From positions 186,001 to 250,000 of the forward strand of contig NZ_JAIUIE010000002.1 of the NCBI RefSeq assembly GCF_020165495.1: a stretch of 64,000 nucleotides of DNA. Reading direction: 5' to 3'. How positions within the stretch are numbered: the stretch's first letter is position 1; the number at the start of each line of letters is the position of its first letter. This document shows positions 17,945-27,913 of this stretch, one piece after another. The notes beneath the pieces were generated by a model that saw nothing but the letters and a program-made list of their open reading frames with translations, was not told the DNA's origin and made no database searches. A program made the translations under genes and the position numbers. The DNA comes from Mesorhizobium sp. BR1-1-16 (GTDB taxonomy: Bacteria > Pseudomonadota > Alphaproteobacteria > Rhizobiales > Kaistiaceae).

Positions 17945-18403
17945 CTAGACCGCGTATCCCCGCGCGCGCCGTTCTTGTTTCGCACGGTCCAGCACAACAC
18001 TGGTGCGGCGCGCCATATCCTCGCAGCGCAGATGCAGCCGCTCGAGCTCCTCATCCGTGAGCTTCTCGATCCCCATGAACTCATCCTCGGCATTGGAGGA
18101 GCGGATCAGCTCGTCGAGTTTGGTCTGCACGGCAGCGCCGTCGCGGTTCTGCGTATTCTGGATCAGGAAAACCATCAGGAAGGTGATGATGGTGGTGCTG
18201 GTGTTGATGACGAGCTGCCACGTCTCGGAGAAACCGAAGACCGGTCCGGAGACCGCCCAGATCACGACGCCCGCGACGCAGAGGAGGAAGGCGAAAGGAC
18301 TGCCAGTCGCCCGGGCGGTCCGGTTGGCGAACGTCGCGAAGAGCTTGTCGAGCTTCATGGTTTGGGGCACCGGGTCGGCGGTGGAAAGCCCTGGTGCCGT
18401 CAT
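17945..18403 (-). CDS. Low-affinity iron permease family protein
   Basis: A 152-aa protein with two hydrophobic segments (A-F-L-L-C-V-A-G-V-V-I-W-A-V-S-G and L-V-I-N-T-S-T-T-I-I-T-F-L-M-V-F-L) followed by the family hallmark I-Q-N-T-Q-N-R-D and a helical tail. This is the PF04120 family, named after yeast Fet4 although transport by the short bacterial members is unproven. The start at 18403 has GGGGAG upstream at a rather long distance; an internal Met at 18358 is an alternative and lines up better with family N-termini. The gene converges on the MurJ paralogue with a 9-bp gap. Confidence 0.85.
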   Translation of the reverse strand: MTAPGLSTADPVPQTMKLDKLFATFANRTARATGSPFAFLLCVAGVVIWAVSGPVFGFSETWQLVINTSTTIITFLMVFLIQNTQNRDGAAVQTKLDELIRSSNAEDEFMGIEKLTDEELERLHLRCEDMARRTSVVLDRAKQERRARGYAV

Positions 18404-18478
18404 GGCGGCAGGCGCTCCCCAGCGTCACCTTGACAACGGCCTGGCCGGGAGCCCGGTTCCCCCGACGGACAGCCGACC

Positions 18479-19336
18479 CTAGAGGATTGGCTTCCCGCCT
18501 GTGACAGCGATGGTCGCGCCCGAAACATAGCTCGAGAGCGGGTCGGCCAGCATCACATAAGCTGTTGCGAGCTCGGCCGGCTGGCCCGGCCGCTGCATGG
18601 GAACCTGCTTGCCGAAATTGGTGACCTTGTCCTCAGGCATGGTCGAGGGAATGAGCGGCGTCCAGATCGGGCCCGGCGCGACGCTGTTGGCGCGAATCCC
18701 CTTCTCGGCGAGGAGCTGCGCCAGTCCGGCCGTGAAGTTCTGGATCGCCCCCTTGGTCGTGGCATAGGCGAGGAGGTGCGGGCTCGGACTGTCCGAATTG
18801 ATCGACGCCGTGTTGATGATCGACGACCCGGGCTTCATGTGGGGGACGGCTGCCTTGGTCAGGTAGAACATCGCATGGATGTTCACCCGGAAGGTCAGGT
18901 CCCATTCCTCGTCGCTGATATCCTCGATCGCACTGAAGCTCGCCTGATGCGCGGCATTGTTGACGAGGATGTCGATGCCGCCGAGTTGCTCCACGGCCTT
19001 GGCGATGATGGCCCGGCAATGCGCCGGATCCTGGATGTCTCCTGCCACCAGCACGGCCTTGCGGCCTTCCGCTTCGATCAGCTTGCGGGTCGCCTCGGCA
19101 TCGGCGTCCTCGTTGAGATAGGCGATGAGCACGTCGGCGCCCTCGCGGGCATAGGCGATCGCAACCGCACGGCCGATGCCGCTGTCGCCGCCGGTGATGA
19201 CGGCCTTCATGCCCTTGAGGCGGCCGGAGCCCTTATAGCTCGTTTCGCCATGATCAGGCACGGGATCCATGCTCGCGGTCGCGCCCGGCATCGGCTGTGG
19301 CTGCTTCGGGAAAGGCGGTCTCGGATAGGCGTTCAT
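18479..19336 (-). CDS. SDR family oxidoreductase, general-stress type
   Basis: A 285-aa SDR with the long N-terminal extension (P-F-P-K-Q-P-Q-P-M-P-G, then D-H-G-E-T-S-Y-K-G-S-G-R-L-K-G) characteristic of the YhxD/YdaD/GsiB-associated stress dehydrogenases. The cofactor motif T-G-G-D-S-G-I-G and catalytic Y-A-T-T-K are intact. GAGGAG lies upstream of the ATG at 19336; an in-frame Met at 19375 is less likely. It diverges from the YciF-like ferritin gene, another stress marker, so a shared stress-response promoter region (19337-19569) is plausible. Substrate unknown. Confidence 0.9.
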   Translation of the reverse strand: MNAYPRPPFPKQPQPMPGATASMDPVPDHGETSYKGSGRLKGMKAVITGGDSGIGRAVAIAYAREGADVLIAYLNEDADAEATRKLIEAEGRKAVLVAGDIQDPAHCRAIIAKAVEQLGGIDILVNNAAHQASFSAIEDISDEEWDLTFRVNIHAMFYLTKAAVPHMKPGSSIINTASINSDSPSPHLLAYATTKGAIQNFTAGLAQLLAEKGIRANSVAPGPIWTPLIPSTMPEDKVTNFGKQVPMQRPGQPAELATAYVMLADPLSSYVSGATIAVTGGKPIL

Positions 19337-19569
19337 GGTTCTCGTCTCCTCGTCTGATCGATGATGGATCGGCATGAAGCGGGCGTCGCGCAGCTGCCGT
19401 TATCCGTCCAATCCGACCGGCCGCCGAATGTTCCGAAACCCGTCGATGCGCTCATCATGACGATGCGATGGAACGTCTGGCGGCTTCGGCGACTTGTAGA
19501 CTCGACGGCCGTCGACCGCATCTTGCGAAGACTGTGCCGGCATCATCCCATACTGACGGAGAGTCACCC

Positions 19570-20067
19570 ATGGCCAAGCAGCCCAAGGACTTGAACGACC
19601 TTTTCCTTGAAACGCTCAAGGATATCTATTTCGCCGAGAAGCAGATCCTCCGCGCCCTGCCGAAGATGGCCAAGGCCGCGCAGTCGACCGAGCTGACCGC
19701 CGCTTTCGAGAAGCACCGCGACGAGACCGAGACCCATGTCGAGCGCCTCGAGCAGGTTTTCGAGCTGGTTGGCAAGCCGGCGCGTGGCAAGACCTGCGAG
19801 GCCATCCTCGGCATCGTCGAGGAAGGCAAGGAGATCATGGAGGATTTCGCCGGCACGGCGGCGCTTGATCCCGGCCTCGTCGCCGCCGCGCAGGCCGTCG
19901 AGCATTACGAGATGGCCCGCTATGGCACGTTGCGCGCCTGGGCCCAGCAGCTCGGCATGAAGGATGCGGTTGCGCTCCTGGATGCGACGCTGGGCGAGGA
20001 AAAGGCGACCGATGCCGCCCTTTCGAAGCTCGGCACGGCCGCGCTCAACCAGAAGGCCGCTGCCTGA
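19570..20067 (+). CDS. YciE/YciF ferritin-like family protein (DUF892)
   Basis: A 165-aa all-helical protein. It has the DUF892 pattern: D-L-F-L-E-T-L-K-D-I-Y-F-A-E-K-Q-I-L-R-A-L-P-K-M at the N-terminus, E-x-H-x-x-E-T-x-x-H-V-E-R-L in helix two, and the later A-A-A-Q-A-V-E-H-Y-E-M-A-R-Y-G metal-ligand helix, giving the Glu/His set of a ferritin-like di-iron site. E. coli YciF is induced by osmotic stress; the role here is probably stress-related iron or peroxide handling. GGAG precedes the ATG. Confidence 0.92.
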   Translation: MAKQPKDLNDLFLETLKDIYFAEKQILRALPKMAKAAQSTELTAAFEKHRDETETHVERLEQVFELVGKPARGKTCEAILGIVEEGKEIMEDFAGTAALDPGLVAAAQAVEHYEMARYGTLRAWAQQLGMKDAVALLDATLGEEKATDAALSKLGTAALNQKAAA

Positions 20068-20080
20068 TCGAGCTAGGCGC

Positions 20081-22175: not shown

Positions 22176-22517
22176 CCAAGGCTCCGTCCGGCATGGCAGG
22201 GCTGACCACGCATCATGCCGCCGCCACCGCGTCACGGCGGTTGGTTACGAGGGATCAGCCAAGGGCGCAAGCCTCAAGGGCATGCACGGGTCGAACAGGA
22301 GAGGCCGCACGGAGAGAAGGCAAATGGTGCTGCGGGCGTCGTCGCAGAGTTGCGTTATCAAACTGTAGATGCTCAGCAATCCCCAGTTTGGTTCGGGAGA
22401 AGGCCAACGGAAAGGCGGAACATATCGTTCGTTGTGAACGTCCCGTTCGGCGACCGGCCTCAACTGAACGCGCTTAAATCGTTGAAAGTCACATGGCCGG
22501 AGATAGGTCCTGGCCTC
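22176..22517. other. Intergenic region between GreA-like and aminotransferase genes
   Basis: 342 bp without a supportable gene. It must hold the promoter of the aminotransferase. The only structure noticed is a short CGTTC-N5-GAACG inverted repeat at 22426-22440, too small to interpret. Confidence 0.5.
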
Positions 22518-23000
22518 TTAACCAACGGAGAGGATCTCGAGTTCGCTGTTCCCGAATTGGACAACGTCGCCAACGCTTTTCCCAAGCAAGGCCGTCGCCA
22601 CCGGAGAACCATGCGATATCGAACCCCGGGAAGGGTCGGCCTCGTCCTCGCCGACGATCCGGAACGTCTGCTGCCGACCATCGTCACGCTCGAAGGTGAC
22701 GGTATGGCCGAAGGCAATCGCGTCATTCGAGGTTGGCGCCGGCACCACCTGGGCCGTGCGAACGCGTTCGGCGTAGTAACGCATATCCCGGACGGGAAGC
22801 GCCGACTGCCGCCGCCTTTCGTTGACATCCTCCAGCGCGTCAGCGGCCTCAAAAGCCTCTCGCGCCTTGGCCAGTTCATCTTGCAGCATATGGAGGCCAA
22901 CCTCCGTGACGAGGTTGATGCGGTCGGAGATCGGACGAGCGGGCAGAATGGTCTCGGACGCGGCCTCGGCACTTTCTTCTTTGACAAAAGCCACGCTCAA
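22518..23000 (-). CDS. GreA/GreB-family transcription elongation factor-like protein
   Basis: A 160-aa protein with the two GreA parts: an N-terminal helical region (residues 35-70, L-Q-D-E-L-A-K-A-R-E-A-F) and the FKBP-like C-terminal domain with V-T-F-E-R-D-D-G-x-x-x-T-F-R-I-V-G-E-D-E-A-D-P and G-x-I-S-H-G-S-P-V-A-x-A-L-L-G-K. The start is a TTG at 23000 with AGGAG 9 nt upstream. The N-terminal coiled coil is shorter than in housekeeping GreA, so it is probably an accessory paralogue of the kind found in many rhizobia, affecting RNA polymerase backtracking or competing at its secondary channel. Confidence 0.85.
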   Translation of the reverse strand: MSVAFVKEESAEAASETILPARPISDRINLVTEVGLHMLQDELAKAREAFEAADALEDVNERRRQSALPVRDMRYYAERVRTAQVVPAPTSNDAIAFGHTVTFERDDGRQQTFRIVGEDEADPSRGSISHGSPVATALLGKSVGDVVQFGNSELEILSVG

Positions 23001-23259
23001 TGGACCGGTCTCCTGTCTGGGACTATCCGAACCCGACTAACGGACAGTGTGAGATAAGGCTGCAAAGCATTCGGCACAACGGCGTCCGCTCCTCGAGGCG
23101 ACTGGCACGAACGATGTGAAGGCAACCGGCCTTGCCGAGCCGGCGTCGCAGCGTCAATGCCCGTCTCAACAAGGCGTTCAGCCTAGCAAGTGCTCCGGCT
23201 CTGCGCCAACTTCAGACATTCGACACGCGCCGGAACCCCGACATTCGTAACCCCATGGT

Positions 23260-24171
23260 TCACGCCGCCCCTGTGTCCGTTGCGATCTCCCGCACGAAGT
23301 CCAGAAAGGCCCGAACCTTTGCCGGCGGCAGGTGACGCGAGGGATAATAGGCGTAGAGCGGATACAGTTCCTCGGACCACTCCGGCAGGATCTGGACGAG
23401 GTCGCCCGCTGACAGAAGGGGCGCAAGACCCACGGCGAGGCTCTGGAAGATCCCCTGGCCTGCTATGCAGGCGGAGAGCGCAACGGAAGGATCGTCCAGC
23501 ATCAGGCGGCTCGAGACCTTGACTCCGATCGACTCGCCGTTGCGTCGAAATTCCCAGGGAAACGGCAATCCGGTCTGCGGATCGCGGAACAGCAGCGCCT
23601 CATGATGGACGAGGTCGTGAGGCGAGTGCGGTTGCCCATGACGATCCAGATAGCCGGGCGAGGCCACCGTCACCACGCGCGTGTCCAGCAGTTTCCGGGC
23701 GATGAGGGACGACGTATCCGGCGGACCGAACCGCACCGCGACGTCGACGCCGGACATCATCTCCTCGCGGTAATTGCTGGTGAAGACGTCCACTGAGAGC
23801 AACGGGTGGCGCTGCAGGAACCGCTGCAGATTTGAAGCGAGCACCATGCGCGCAAACCACGGGTCCACCGACACGCGCAGCCGGCCTCGCACCACCGCCG
23901 CCGCTCCGGCAGCCTCCGACGCGGCCTCGTCGAGGCCGGCGAGCAGCGGCATCACCTGCGCGTGGAAGCGGCGTCCCTCTTCAGTGAGGCTGACCTCGCG
24001 TGGGCCGCGGTCGAACAGTCGAACGCCGACCCGCGCTTCCAGCCGTGCGACGGCTCGGCTCACGCCCGAAGGCGTCAGACCAAGCATCTCGGCAGCGCGC
24101 GCAAAATTGCCCGCTTCGGTGACGGCAGCCATGACGCCGACTCCGGTCAGCAATCGCGTGTCGAACACCAT
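23260..24171 (-). CDS. LysR family transcriptional regulator
   Basis: A 303-aa LysR regulator: winged helix at residues 8-65 (F-A-R-A-A-E-M-L-G-L-T-P-S-G-V-S-R-A-V-A-R-L-E, split over the recognition helix) and a periplasmic-binding-like effector domain. GGAGCG stands 8 nt before the ATG at 24171; an in-frame TTG at 24195 is less likely. It diverges from an NmrA-like oxidoreductase gene, the standard layout in which LysR controls its neighbour. Confidence 0.93.
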   Translation of the reverse strand: MVFDTRLLTGVGVMAAVTEAGNFARAAEMLGLTPSGVSRAVARLEARVGVRLFDRGPREVSLTEEGRRFHAQVMPLLAGLDEAASEAAGAAAVVRGRLRVSVDPWFARMVLASNLQRFLQRHPLLSVDVFTSNYREEMMSGVDVAVRFGPPDTSSLIARKLLDTRVVTVASPGYLDRHGQPHSPHDLVHHEALLFRDPQTGLPFPWEFRRNGESIGVKVSSRLMLDDPSVALSACIAGQGIFQSLAVGLAPLLSAGDLVQILPEWSEELYPLYAYYPSRHLPPAKVRAFLDFVREIATDTGAA

Positions 24172-24204
24172 GCTTCGCGCTCCGGCTCTGACCAAGAGTG
24201 AATC

Positions 24205-24223
24205 TCAGTCAACATAGCACTGA
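24205..24223. promoter_or_regulatory. Possible LysR-type binding site
   Basis: TCAGT-N9-ACTGA, an interrupted dyad in the 286-bp divergent gap between the LysR gene and the oxidoreductase, 34 bp from the LysR start. Position and symmetry fit an autoregulatory LysR box; the match to the T-N11-A rule is only approximate. Confidence 0.35.
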
Positions 24224-24457
24224 TACGAATGCGCGTGAATCACACCCCGGCGCGCCGTACAACATCTCCATCACGGAACCGCGGTGAAGCGTGCTGACCC
24301 AATCGAAATTTCTTCGATGCGGAAGGGGGTCGGCCACGAACGTCCAGGGCGTGCCCTTCCATGCCGAACGCGTGGTCGCGCTCTACGGCGCCGTCGAGCG
24401 CGAACTCTGTGCCGGTCTGACCTGACCGCGCACTCCCACATCCATAGGAGAACCACC

Positions 24458-25339
24458 ATGTATGCCATCACCGGAATCACCGGCAAGGTCGGCGGCGCCC
24501 TGGCGCGTAGCCTGCTGGCCGAGAAACTGCCCGTGCGGGCCGTGCTGCGCGACGAGACCAAGGCGGCCGAGTGGCGCGCCAGGGGTTGCCAGATTGCCAT
24601 CGCCGAGATGGATGATGCGGTCAGCCTCGGCGCCGCCTTCAAGGATGCGGACGGGGTCTTCATTCTACCGCCATCGCAGTTCGACCCGGAGCCAGGCTTT
24701 CCGGAAGTTCGCCGCGTCATCCACGCCGTGACCGAAGCGCTCGGCGAAACGCGTCTGGCAAAGGTCGTCTCCCTCTCGACCATCGGTGCCGACGCGCTAC
24801 AAGAGAACCTGCTGTATCAGCACACGCTGATGGAGGAAGCGTTGGGCGGGCTCGGCCTTGCGGTCACATTCCTCCGGCCCGCCTGGTTCATGGAGAATGC
24901 GCAGTGGGACATTCCTGCCGCGCGCGATGAAGGCGTGCTGCGCAGTTTCCTCCAGCCGGCCGACAAGCCGTTCCCGATGATCGCGACTGAGGATGTCGGC
25001 CACACCGCCGCCCGCCTGCTGCGCGAGGACTGGGACGGAACGCGGTTTGTAGAGCTGGAAGGACCCACGCGCGTCTCCCCGAACGACATGGCCCGCGCCT
25101 TCGCCGCCGCGCTGGGGCATCCGGTGTCGGTCGAGATCGTGCCGCGCGAGGCATGGGAGGGCATCTTCCGCGCGCAGGGTACGCAAAACCCCACGCCCCG
25201 GATCCGCATGATCGACGGCTTCAACGAAGGCTGGATCGACTTTGCCGATCACGGCCGTGGGGCGCGGAAGGGGACCATCACCATTGAGACCGTCATCGCC
25301 GAGCTGGTGAAGGCCAGTCGCGGCAAAGCTCTCGCCTGA
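24458..25339 (+). CDS. NmrA/NAD(P)H-binding atypical SDR protein
   Basis: A 293-aa atypical SDR. The N-terminal dinucleotide motif is Y-A-I-T-G-I-T-G-K-V-G (residues 2-12), and residues 135-160 have F-L-R-P-A-W-F-M-E-N, a phrase typical of the NmrA-like/QorB-like group (E. coli YtfG type). The catalytic Tyr of classical SDRs is not evident. AGGAG precedes the ATG at 24458. Probably a quinone or small-molecule reductase or a redox sensor; controlled by the divergent LysR gene. Confidence 0.88.
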   Translation: MYAITGITGKVGGALARSLLAEKLPVRAVLRDETKAAEWRARGCQIAIAEMDDAVSLGAAFKDADGVFILPPSQFDPEPGFPEVRRVIHAVTEALGETRLAKVVSLSTIGADALQENLLYQHTLMEEALGGLGLAVTFLRPAWFMENAQWDIPAARDEGVLRSFLQPADKPFPMIATEDVGHTAARLLREDWDGTRFVELEGPTRVSPNDMARAFAAALGHPVSVEIVPREAWEGIFRAQGTQNPTPRIRMIDGFNEGWIDFADHGRGARKGTITIETVIAELVKASRGKALA

Positions 25340-25588
25340 GCTGCAGCTCAGCAGGCATCGGGGAGACAGTGGCAACCGTCAGCTCTCGCCCGTCGCCATG
25401 GCGAGCTTAACGTGCGACTTTTGAAACAGACGTTTCGCTGGTTTCTTTCGCAAGAGCGATCTGTTGGCGGAATTAAGAACACCTGAACCTGTGTGCCGAC
25501 AACGAGATCACGGCCAGCCTCGAAACGTGTTTGATCTGACGGTCGTAGTGGATCAAGACGGTGGCCGAATGTCTGCGGGGCCCGAAAG

Positions 25589-26587
25589 GTGACCGACCCA
25601 TCCACATCGTTCATCGCCGAGCCGGCGACCCATCCGGCGCTGCTAAGAACGCTGACGGCCGCCGGTTTGCCTGCGACCGGACGCTTTCTTCAAACATCCG
25701 GTTGGGTCAGCCGTGTCTGGGTGGGTGATGAATATGTTGTTCGATTGAACAAGGACCCGCGGTTCAGTGGCGCATATCGCCACGAAGCCGCGGTCGTCAG
25801 TCTGCTCATCGGCAGCGAGGTCCCGCACGCCCGGCACGTCGCCCACGGCGACGGCCCAGACGGGCCGTGGTATGTCTCAGAACGCCTGCCGGGCCGCAGC
25901 CTCAGTGACGCATGGCCGGCAGCGGATTCTTCCACGCGCCAAGCGATCATCGAAAGCCTTGGCGCTGCGTTGCGGGCTCTGCATCGCGTTCCTGTTCCGA
26001 CTGGTCTGCTGCCGCCCTGGCTGGCCGACGCGCTCGACGGTGCGCCATGGCCGGCATACCACCCACCGATCGTGAGTGCGGCGCTTCAGCAGGCTGGCGC
26101 CGCCCGGCTGCGTCCCGGTCACGACCCCGGCTTACTCGCGGAGGCCGCCGAGTGGATCGAGGAGCGGCTGTCGTTGTTCGCCAACGACGAACACGTCCTC
26201 GTCCATGGCGATCTTCATGGCTCCAATGTGATCGTCGACCAGGGACACGTCACCGGTCTTGTCGACTTCGCCGAGGCGGTCGCTCAGCCAGCGGATGTGG
26301 AGCTCGATACCATCCTGCGCTGGTGCGCGAGAGCGAGCGAGTTCCCGCCCCGACCCGATGAAAAAGGCCTCGACGAGACCACGCTCGCAGAAATCCCCGC
26401 ATGGCTGCGCGGCGCGTATCCGGAGCTGTTCGCGCGCGAGCATCTGCGGGAGCGCTTGAACTTCTACGACATGTACGGTGAACTCGCTCTTCACGCACAC
26501 CACCCCCAGCCAGAGATGCGCGAAGCGGCGCGCGCCCGCATCGCTCGCCTGCTTTCTGGCTATAACCATCTCGATGGACTCGCCTGA
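25589..26587 (+). CDS. Aminoglycoside phosphotransferase (APH) family kinase
   Basis: A 332-aa APH/choline-kinase-fold protein. The N-lobe has V-V-R-L-N-K; the catalytic loop is H-G-D-L-H-G-S-N at 206-213 (Asp208 as base, Asn213 binding Mg), and G-L-V-D-F-A-E supplies the second metal-binding Asp. Start is a GTG at 25589 with only a weak ribosome site. Family members phosphorylate aminoglycosides, macrolides or ordinary metabolites, and resistance cannot be inferred from the family alone. Just left (25340-25588) is a gap with no recognisable gene. The kinase lies next to a decayed integrase and may have come with that island. Confidence 0.85.
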   Translation: MTDPSTSFIAEPATHPALLRTLTAAGLPATGRFLQTSGWVSRVWVGDEYVVRLNKDPRFSGAYRHEAAVVSLLIGSEVPHARHVAHGDGPDGPWYVSERLPGRSLSDAWPAADSSTRQAIIESLGAALRALHRVPVPTGLLPPWLADALDGAPWPAYHPPIVSAALQQAGAARLRPGHDPGLLAEAAEWIEERLSLFANDEHVLVHGDLHGSNVIVDQGHVTGLVDFAEAVAQPADVELDTILRWCARASEFPPRPDEKGLDETTLAEIPAWLRGAYPELFAREHLRERLNFYDMYGELALHAHHPQPEMREAARARIARLLSGYNHLDGLA

Positions 26588-26698
26588 TAGGTCGTCGTCT
26601 TCGCGCCAGAAGCGCAAATTCGATGCGGTTATCACGTACGGCCGGCTTGGGGCCGTCAGCCGCCAGACTGCTAGTGGCGCTGTGCGCTGATTGCGTGG

Positions 26699-27295
26699 GT
26701 GTCGTACTTCGGCAGCATCGCAGCGCCCTCTAGTGCGGGACAGGCGGCCGGGGACGTCTCGTTCGTGAACTCGACAATTATCGAAGGGGCCTCCACGACG
26801 GCGGTCGAAGTGGGCTCGCGCGGGGGCAATGGCCAGCGTGGTGAGCCCGGCGGCGTGGGCAAGGCCGGAGGCAACGCCGGCACGGTATCCTTCCAGCAGC
26901 TTGCGCCCGCTTCAGGATCGGGCGTACAGGCGAGGTCGACATCGCTCGTCTCCGTCTATTCGATCGGCGGATGGGGCGGGGTTGGGCAGGCAGGGTTGGG
27001 CCGTGGCGGCTCCGCCGGAGGGATATCGGCAGTCCTGGACGCAAGCATTGCGACGCAGGGCGATAATTTTACCGGCCTCTGGGTGCGTTCGGAGGGAGGT
27101 CAGACCGGCAACAACGTGCCGGACGTCGTCGTCACCTCGGCTGGACCACTCCCCTTCGGCTTCAGCACGGCGAGCCTGGCGCAACCTTGGAAGAGCGCCA
27201 ATGGCGGCCAGGTGAATCTCAACACGGCGAGCAAGTACGTCGTGTCGACGCAAGGGGACCGCGCATTCGGTATCGTGCTCGAATCCGTGGGTGGT
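26699..27295 (+). pseudogene. Fragment of an autotransporter-type adhesin passenger domain
   Basis: About 199 codons of glycine/serine/asparagine-rich sequence: G-G-N-G-Q-R-G-E-P-G-G-V-G-K-A-G-G-N-A-G and later V-S-T-Q-G-D-R-A-F-G-I-V-L-E-S-V-G-G. The last phrase is the repeat signature of large autotransporters in rhizobia and related bacteria (T-x-G-D-x-A-x-G-I-x-A-Q-S-I-G-G-G). No signal peptide, no beta-barrel and no real start (only a GTG) are present; the frame runs into unrelated sequence near 27300, beside the integrase remnant. It is therefore a leftover of a much larger gene. Confidence 0.65.
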
Positions 27296-27319
27296 GCCTC
27301 TGCCGCTCCACATGGCGCG

Positions 27320-27576
27320 TCTCGGCGAGCACACCGAGCACACCGAGCGCCTGACGCGGCATAGGCACTTCATGCACCCGGCGGATCTTCGGTCGCGATC
27401 CAAGTGTCGGGCCGGCGAGATCGACGAGCATCCAACGACGTTTCGTCACGGTCGAAGCGGCCGCCACCGTCAGAGAACTTGTAGTCACGGCCCTTGCCTC
27501 TAGCAGTGCGGCAGGCGGTGTCTGAAAGTGCCCGTTTCAGAGCCCGATTGTCGGCCTCGCAAAGCCAAAACGGCAC
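27320..27576 (-). pseudogene. Decayed P4-type tyrosine integrase
   Basis: Two fragments in different frames on the minus strand. The first (27576 to about 27460) gives A-L-S-D-T-A-C-R-T-A-R-G-K-G-R-D-Y-K-F-S, followed by D-G-G-G, the hallmark N-terminus (DUF4102) of P4-like integrases. The second (about 27440 to 27320) gives R-P-K-I-R-R-V-H-E-V-P-M-P-R-Q-A-L, matching the K-x-R-R-x-H-x-V-P-L-S-x-Q-A-L stretch that precedes the catalytic domain. The whole middle and the catalytic C-terminus are gone. Its N-terminus faces the 3' end of tRNA-Phe about 160 bp away, exactly where P4-type islands place their integrase. Confidence 0.65.
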
Positions 27577-27734
27577 GCTGAAGCCAACAGCAAGGCCAAG
27601 ATTTTCGTGCGATGTCTAAAAGGGAGCCGACAGCTTCTGACAGAACGTGAGAGGCCAGAACTGCAGAAAGCCGCGTCAGCCCAAGCCTGTTTGATACAAC
27701 AGGAACGGAGCTGACAGGATCTGACAGGGGGCAA
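27577..27734. other. Gap between integrase remnant and tRNA-Phe
   Basis: 158 bp without a gene. If an island integrated here, the attachment core would be the 3' end of the tRNA (27735-27760). I could not find a second copy of that core further left by eye. Confidence 0.4.
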
Positions 27735-27810
27735 ATGGTGCCTGGGGGCGGAATCGAACCACCGACACGCGGATTTTCAATCCGCTGCTCTACCAACTGA
27801 GCTACCCAGG
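27735..27810 (-). tRNA. tRNA-Phe (anticodon GAA)
   Basis: Folds as a complete 76-nt cloverleaf: acceptor GCCTGGG/CCCAGGC, D-arm GCTC-AGTTGGTA-GAGC, anticodon stem GCGGA/TCCGC with loop TTGAAAA (anticodon GAA), variable loop GTGTC, T-arm GGTGG-TTCGATT-CCGCC, and an encoded ACCA end. Its 3' end points to the integrase remnant. Confidence 0.97.
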
Positions 27811-27913
27811 CCCACGCGCGGCGCGCTTGGCGCTGCGAAGACTGCGGCCTTATAGGGGAGCGCGCGGAACCTGTCCAGAGCCTCGAAAAGCAGGCTGTGG
27901 ATGGTTCGTCCGC

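What the first reader, a model, noticed from the sequence alone, without database searches (positions are those of the whole stretch)
26699..27810. Scar of a genomic island at tRNA-Phe
A P4-type integrase, broken into two fragments of different frame with its N-terminus towards the tRNA 3' end, is followed directly by an autotransporter-passenger fragment. The fusion point near 27300-27320 suggests deletion of most of an island. The APH-family gene at 25589 may be the surviving cargo.
Basis: partly seen in the sequence, partly recalled or inferred. Interest (0 to 1): 0.6.

Follow-up and report, generated by a model that had tools for sequence, protein, structure and literature searches.

The report
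Decayed genomic island at tRNA-Phe

Summary
Window 27336-27531 (minus strand) carries three abutting, collinear pieces of one P4-type tyrosine integrase (about aa 3-26, 118-135 and 266-287 of a ~405 aa protein). The chain scores 154, against 55.5 ± 8.3 for shuffles (max 94 of 300) and a maximum of 109 for other window tiles. It lies about 204 bp from the tRNA-Phe 3' end. Intact relatives occupy the same place and orientation, including eight at tRNA-Phe in sampled genomes of the same order. Pfam misses the pieces because they are so short.

It sits where the closest relative (G001) has the distal att site of a 52-kb prophage in the same tRNA-Phe. The slot is a used integration site; here it holds a 5.41-kb relic with integrase debris, a truncated autotransporter passenger, and APH, NmrA, LysR and GreA genes.

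How large the lost island was, and whether APH was its cargo, is not shown: in G001 the homologous genes lie at unlinked loci. New member of a well-known kind; low interest.

The parts
27736..27811 (-). tRNA-Phe (GAA), intact, CCA encoded; its 3' end is the integration target
   Evidence: ARAGORN; tRNA found in all relatives searched, with the yacG/maf side conserved in the genus
27730..27750 (.). att core at the tRNA end: GGCAAATGGTGCCTGGGGGCG
22319..22338 (.). degenerate distal att repeat: GGCAAATGGTGC-TGCGGGCG (one indel, one mismatch)
   Evidence: sits at the position homologous to the prophage attR of G001
27460..27531 (-). integrase remnant piece 1, arm-binding N-terminus (aa 3-26 of L036 integrase)
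27408..27461 (-). integrase remnant piece 2, core-binding domain (aa 118-135)
27336..27401 (-). integrase remnant piece 3, early catalytic domain (aa 266-287); rest of catalytic domain absent
26699..27301 (+). autotransporter passenger fragment, truncated at both ends (no signal peptide, no barrel)
27302..27335 (.). fusion point between passenger fragment and integrase debris
   Evidence: limits of the two alignments
26647..26694 (.). 48-bp stretch 86% identical to G000:C10:31777-31825, at the junction between APH and the passenger fragment
25589..26587 (+). APH-family (PF01636) phosphotransferase; below every named resistance-gene cut-off
   Evidence: G001 homologue at C9:36327-37417
24284..25339 (+). 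NmrA-like NAD(P)-binding protein (start probably further in, at 24458)
   Evidence: G001:C4:710682-712867; rhizobial megaplasmids
23260..24195 (-). LysR-family regulator, divergent from NmrA
22518..23000 (-). GreA-type elongation factor (NCBIfam PRK06342), found at other loci in relatives
22331..27735 (.). variable segment between the two att copies (5.4 kb)

Best explanation
An integrative element with a P4-type tyrosine integrase once inserted by site-specific recombination into the 3' end of tRNA-Phe. It rebuilt the tRNA end on its integrase side and left a second att copy at the far side. The integrase then decayed: two internal deletions removed about 92 and 130 residues, its start codon was lost, and its C-terminal catalytic part was replaced by a piece of an autotransporter gene, so the element could no longer excise by itself. 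Further deletion and rearrangement left a 5.4-kb relic with a few accessory genes. Shown: the integrase pieces, their geometry, the repeat, and use of the site by another element in the closest relative. Inferred: the order of events, the original size, and which genes were original cargo.
For: Three-piece collinear integrase chain far above controls. Spacing of about 204 bp from the tRNA end and same-strand orientation, as in intact relatives at tRNA-Leu/Thr/Arg/Ser/Met/Phe and tmRNA, eight of them at tRNA-Phe in sampled genomes of the order. Degenerate att pair 5411 bp apart; the exact 12-mer occurs only at these two places in the window, and the left copy is the best match in 9.7 kb. The left copy aligns with the attR of a 52-kb prophage in the same tRNA-Phe of G001. 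In genus members DNA similarity to the left of the tRNA stops at its 3' end.
Against: Homologues of GreA, APH and LysR-NmrA lie at unlinked loci in G001, so the 5.4 kb may be an accretion rather than one island's leftover. GreA is found at varying loci across the genus, which is unusual cargo. G+C content is not anomalous. No fuller copy of this particular island was found.
Confidence: 0.85

Rival explanations
1. The tRNA-Phe slot is an insertion hotspot that collected unrelated debris. The integrase remnant is what is left of one old element, while GreA, LysR-NmrA and APH arrived later by independent rearrangement and were never its cargo. This rival concerns the cargo, and is compatible with the best explanation of the integrase scar itself.
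For: In G001 these genes lie at C4:710 kb and C9:35-40 kb, away from tRNA-Phe. In G000 the flanks of the G001 LysR-NmrA site are on other contigs. The junctions are abrupt and different DNA occupies the slot in each species.
Against: All of these genes lie between the two att copies. In G001 an NmrA tail also lies upstream of APH, and GreA beside it, so the genes share some history.
Confidence: 0.4
2. The left att-like repeat is a chance match and the element's far end has been lost completely; only the integrase debris is real.
For: The repeat is short, with one indel and one mismatch; a second match in the same 9.7 kb scores 26 against 31. In E. coli pheV islands the distal repeat is often missing in small islands (PMC11537424).
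Against: It sits at the homologous position of the attR of the G001 prophage, and the exact 12-mer occurs only at these two places in 64 kb.
Confidence: 0.2
3. The integrase similarity is chance and this is ordinary intergenic DNA.
For: No Pfam match for the single ORFs; each piece alone is weak.
Against: Chain score 154 with 0 of 300 shuffles above 94, correct order, strand and distance from the tRNA.
Confidence: 0.02

Closest known systems
P4-integrase (intP4) genomic islands at pheV tRNA-Phe of Escherichia coli (PMC11537424)
   Same: P4-type integrase directly beside tRNA-Phe, imperfect distal repeat, remnant forms with only part of the island left
   Different: Here the integrase itself is broken into three short pieces and the relic is only 5.4 kb; the host is an alphaproteobacterium whose family includes Bauldia
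Intact P4-type integrase at tRNA-Phe in Bauldia sp. (L036/L079, JANQRX010000010.1)
   Same: Same tRNA, same strand and orientation, similar spacing; among the best matches to the remnant (score 154)
   Different: Intact 437-aa open frame; its distal end was not mapped
52-kb prophage in tRNA-Phe of G001, the closest relative
   Same: Same target gene, same left chromosomal flank, att repeat TGGTGCCTGGGGGCG
   Different: Unrelated phage-type integrase in the opposite orientation, phage morphogenesis genes

Membership tests
tRNA-integrated genomic island with P4-type integrase | Integrase of the PF13356/PF22022/PF00589 type immediately downstream of a tRNA gene, same orientation | tested here: met
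   Three pieces covering parts of all three domains, about 204 bp from the tRNA end; intact relatives in the same geometry
tRNA-integrated genomic island with P4-type integrase | Direct repeat of the tRNA 3' end at the distal boundary | tested here: met
   Imperfect repeat at 22319-22338, homologous to the G001 attR position; degenerate, so met with reservation
tRNA-integrated genomic island with P4-type integrase | Functional integrase able to excise the island | tested here: not met
   Start codon and most of the catalytic domain missing, two internal deletions; it is a relic of such an island, not a working one
tRNA-integrated genomic island with P4-type integrase | Contents absent from this site in relatives | tested here: met
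   Homology in relatives stops at the tRNA 3' end; G001 carries a prophage there
Prophage at tRNA-Phe | Phage structural genes | tested here: not met
   No phage gene among the window segment's proteins by Pfam/NCBIfam
Aminoglycoside resistance gene (APH) | Score above a curated APH cut-off | tested here: not met
   Best NCBIfam score 45 against a cut-off of 205

The most novel reading that the evidence does not exclude
The GreA, LysR, NmrA and APH genes here and at the G001 C9 locus are circular permutations of one unit (convergent GreA/APH there, outward-facing ends here), which would mean the relic's contents moved through a circular form after the species split and carried a GreA gene that relatives keep at other loci.
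Probability: 0.08. Interest if true: 0.35.

Novelty: new member of a known kind. Interest (0 to 1): 0.15.

Why it matters
It is a clean worked case of island decay: integrase pieces, target tRNA and a fading att site can still be read together, and the same slot is in use in the sister species. It also shows that ORF-by-ORF profile searches miss such relics, while a frame-tolerant chain search finds them.

Tried and rejected
Pfam on the two minus-strand ORFs gave no integrase hit; replaced by a frame-tolerant chain alignment. A first version of that alignment with lenient penalties over-fitted and was replaced by the stricter one. A simple mismatch search for the tRNA tail found no second copy because the distal repeat has an indel. 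Scans for a donor of the autotransporter fragment in sampled genomes of the class and in genome contigs found nothing closer than the genome's own 33% paralogue. Anomalous G+C as evidence was rejected: the segment is about 60-68% like its surroundings. The idea that the 48-bp stretch at 26647 is a common IS end was not supported: only one other copy, in the same genome. Short exact repeats inside intact integrases that would explain the two internal deletions were looked for and not matched convincingly.

Full report
Observation. ARAGORN places an intact tRNA-Phe at 27736-27811 on the minus strand. Downstream of it, on the same strand, two minus-strand frames carry integrase-like sequence. Pfam does not recognise either ORF, but blastx against intact integrases of the genus, and a profile built from them, do. 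A frame-tolerant alignment that allows free deletion of protein sequence finds three abutting pieces in the right order: aa 3-26, 118-135 and 266-287 of the integrase that stands beside tRNA-Phe in G014. The score is 154 against a shuffle mean of 55.5 (sd 8.3, maximum 94 of 300), and the best of 292 tiles of the window reaches 109. Several other intact integrases give the same level. The missing parts are about 92 and 130 residues inside, the start codon, and everything after residue 287; by general knowledge of tyrosine recombinases this removes the catalytic arginines, histidine and tyrosine.

Geometry. In intact members of this integrase group the gene starts about 170-220 bp after the 3' end of a tRNA or tmRNA gene and runs the same way (distances read from the loci). 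Of 30 intact relatives fetched from sampled genomes of the same order, eight are at tRNA-Phe and most others at tRNA-Leu, -Thr or -Met. The remnant begins 204 bp from the tRNA end.

The other end. The closest relative G001 is collinear with the window from the left up to window 22273. There a 52-kb block begins that reaches to tRNA-Phe. It is a prophage: integrase, terminase, portal and capsid genes. Its distal att repeat, TGGTGCCTGGGGGCG, lies 47 bp beyond the collinear end. At the matching place the window has GGCAAATGGTGC-TGCGGGCG (22319-22338), against GGCAAATGGTGCCTGGGGGCG at the tRNA end (27730-27750). The 12-mer GGCAAATGGTGC occurs exactly at these two places and nowhere else in the window, and the left copy is the best match in the 9.7 kb searched. 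The slot is therefore 5.41 kb here and 52 kb in G001.

Contents. Between the att copies lie GreA, LysR, an NmrA-like gene, an APH-family gene, the passenger fragment and the integrase debris. The passenger fragment is weakly but credibly related to the start of the passenger of a 2081-aa ORF of the same genome that ends in an autotransporter beta-domain. It lacks signal peptide and barrel and ends within about 35 bp of the last integrase piece. APH scores far below named resistance enzymes. LysR-NmrA is an accessory pair found on many rhizobial plasmids. In G001 the homologues are at other places: LysR-NmrA at C4:710 kb, APH and GreA side by side at C9:35-37 kb with an NmrA tail nearby. So it cannot be said that they were cargo of the element whose integrase remains.

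Comparison. E. coli pheV islands are the nearest described parallel: P4 integrase beside tRNA-Phe, imperfect distal repeats, and smaller islands that lack the distal repeat (PMC11537424). The present case differs in degree of decay, not in kind.

Identity of the host. The record of G014 is titled Bauldia sp., and G014 is in the same family as the window's genome.

Noticed in passing
22518-23000 and L068 5449-5940: A GreA-type gene (PRK06342) with one DNA-level copy in this genome lies inside the att-bounded segment; in relatives it is at different loci with different neighbours.
   Followed up: partly
22466-26619 vs L068 5385-10383: Gene order GreA-LysR-NmrA-APH here versus NmrA tail-APH-GreA in G001 looks like a circular permutation opened between GreA and APH.
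   Followed up: partly
27620-27720: Repeated CTGTCAG/CTGTCGG motifs between tRNA-Phe and the integrase remnant, in the place where arm-type integrase sites would be expected.
   Followed up: no
26647-26694: 48 bp, 86% identical to one other place in the genome (C10:31777-31825), at the APH/passenger junction; nature unknown.
   Followed up: partly
18005-20069: Parts of this block have 86-88% identical copies at G000:C24:191277-192581, about 4 kb from a second P4-type integrase (C24:187611).
   Followed up: no
L001 (G000:C12:798-1970): An intact P4-type integrase at tRNA-Leu(CAG) about 210 kb away on the same contig.
   Followed up: partly
L037 1694-2770 (G012:C35): Another species of the genus has a 359-aa integrase beside tRNA-Phe in the opposite orientation, so the site has probably been used at least three times by different elements in the genus.
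   Followed up: partly
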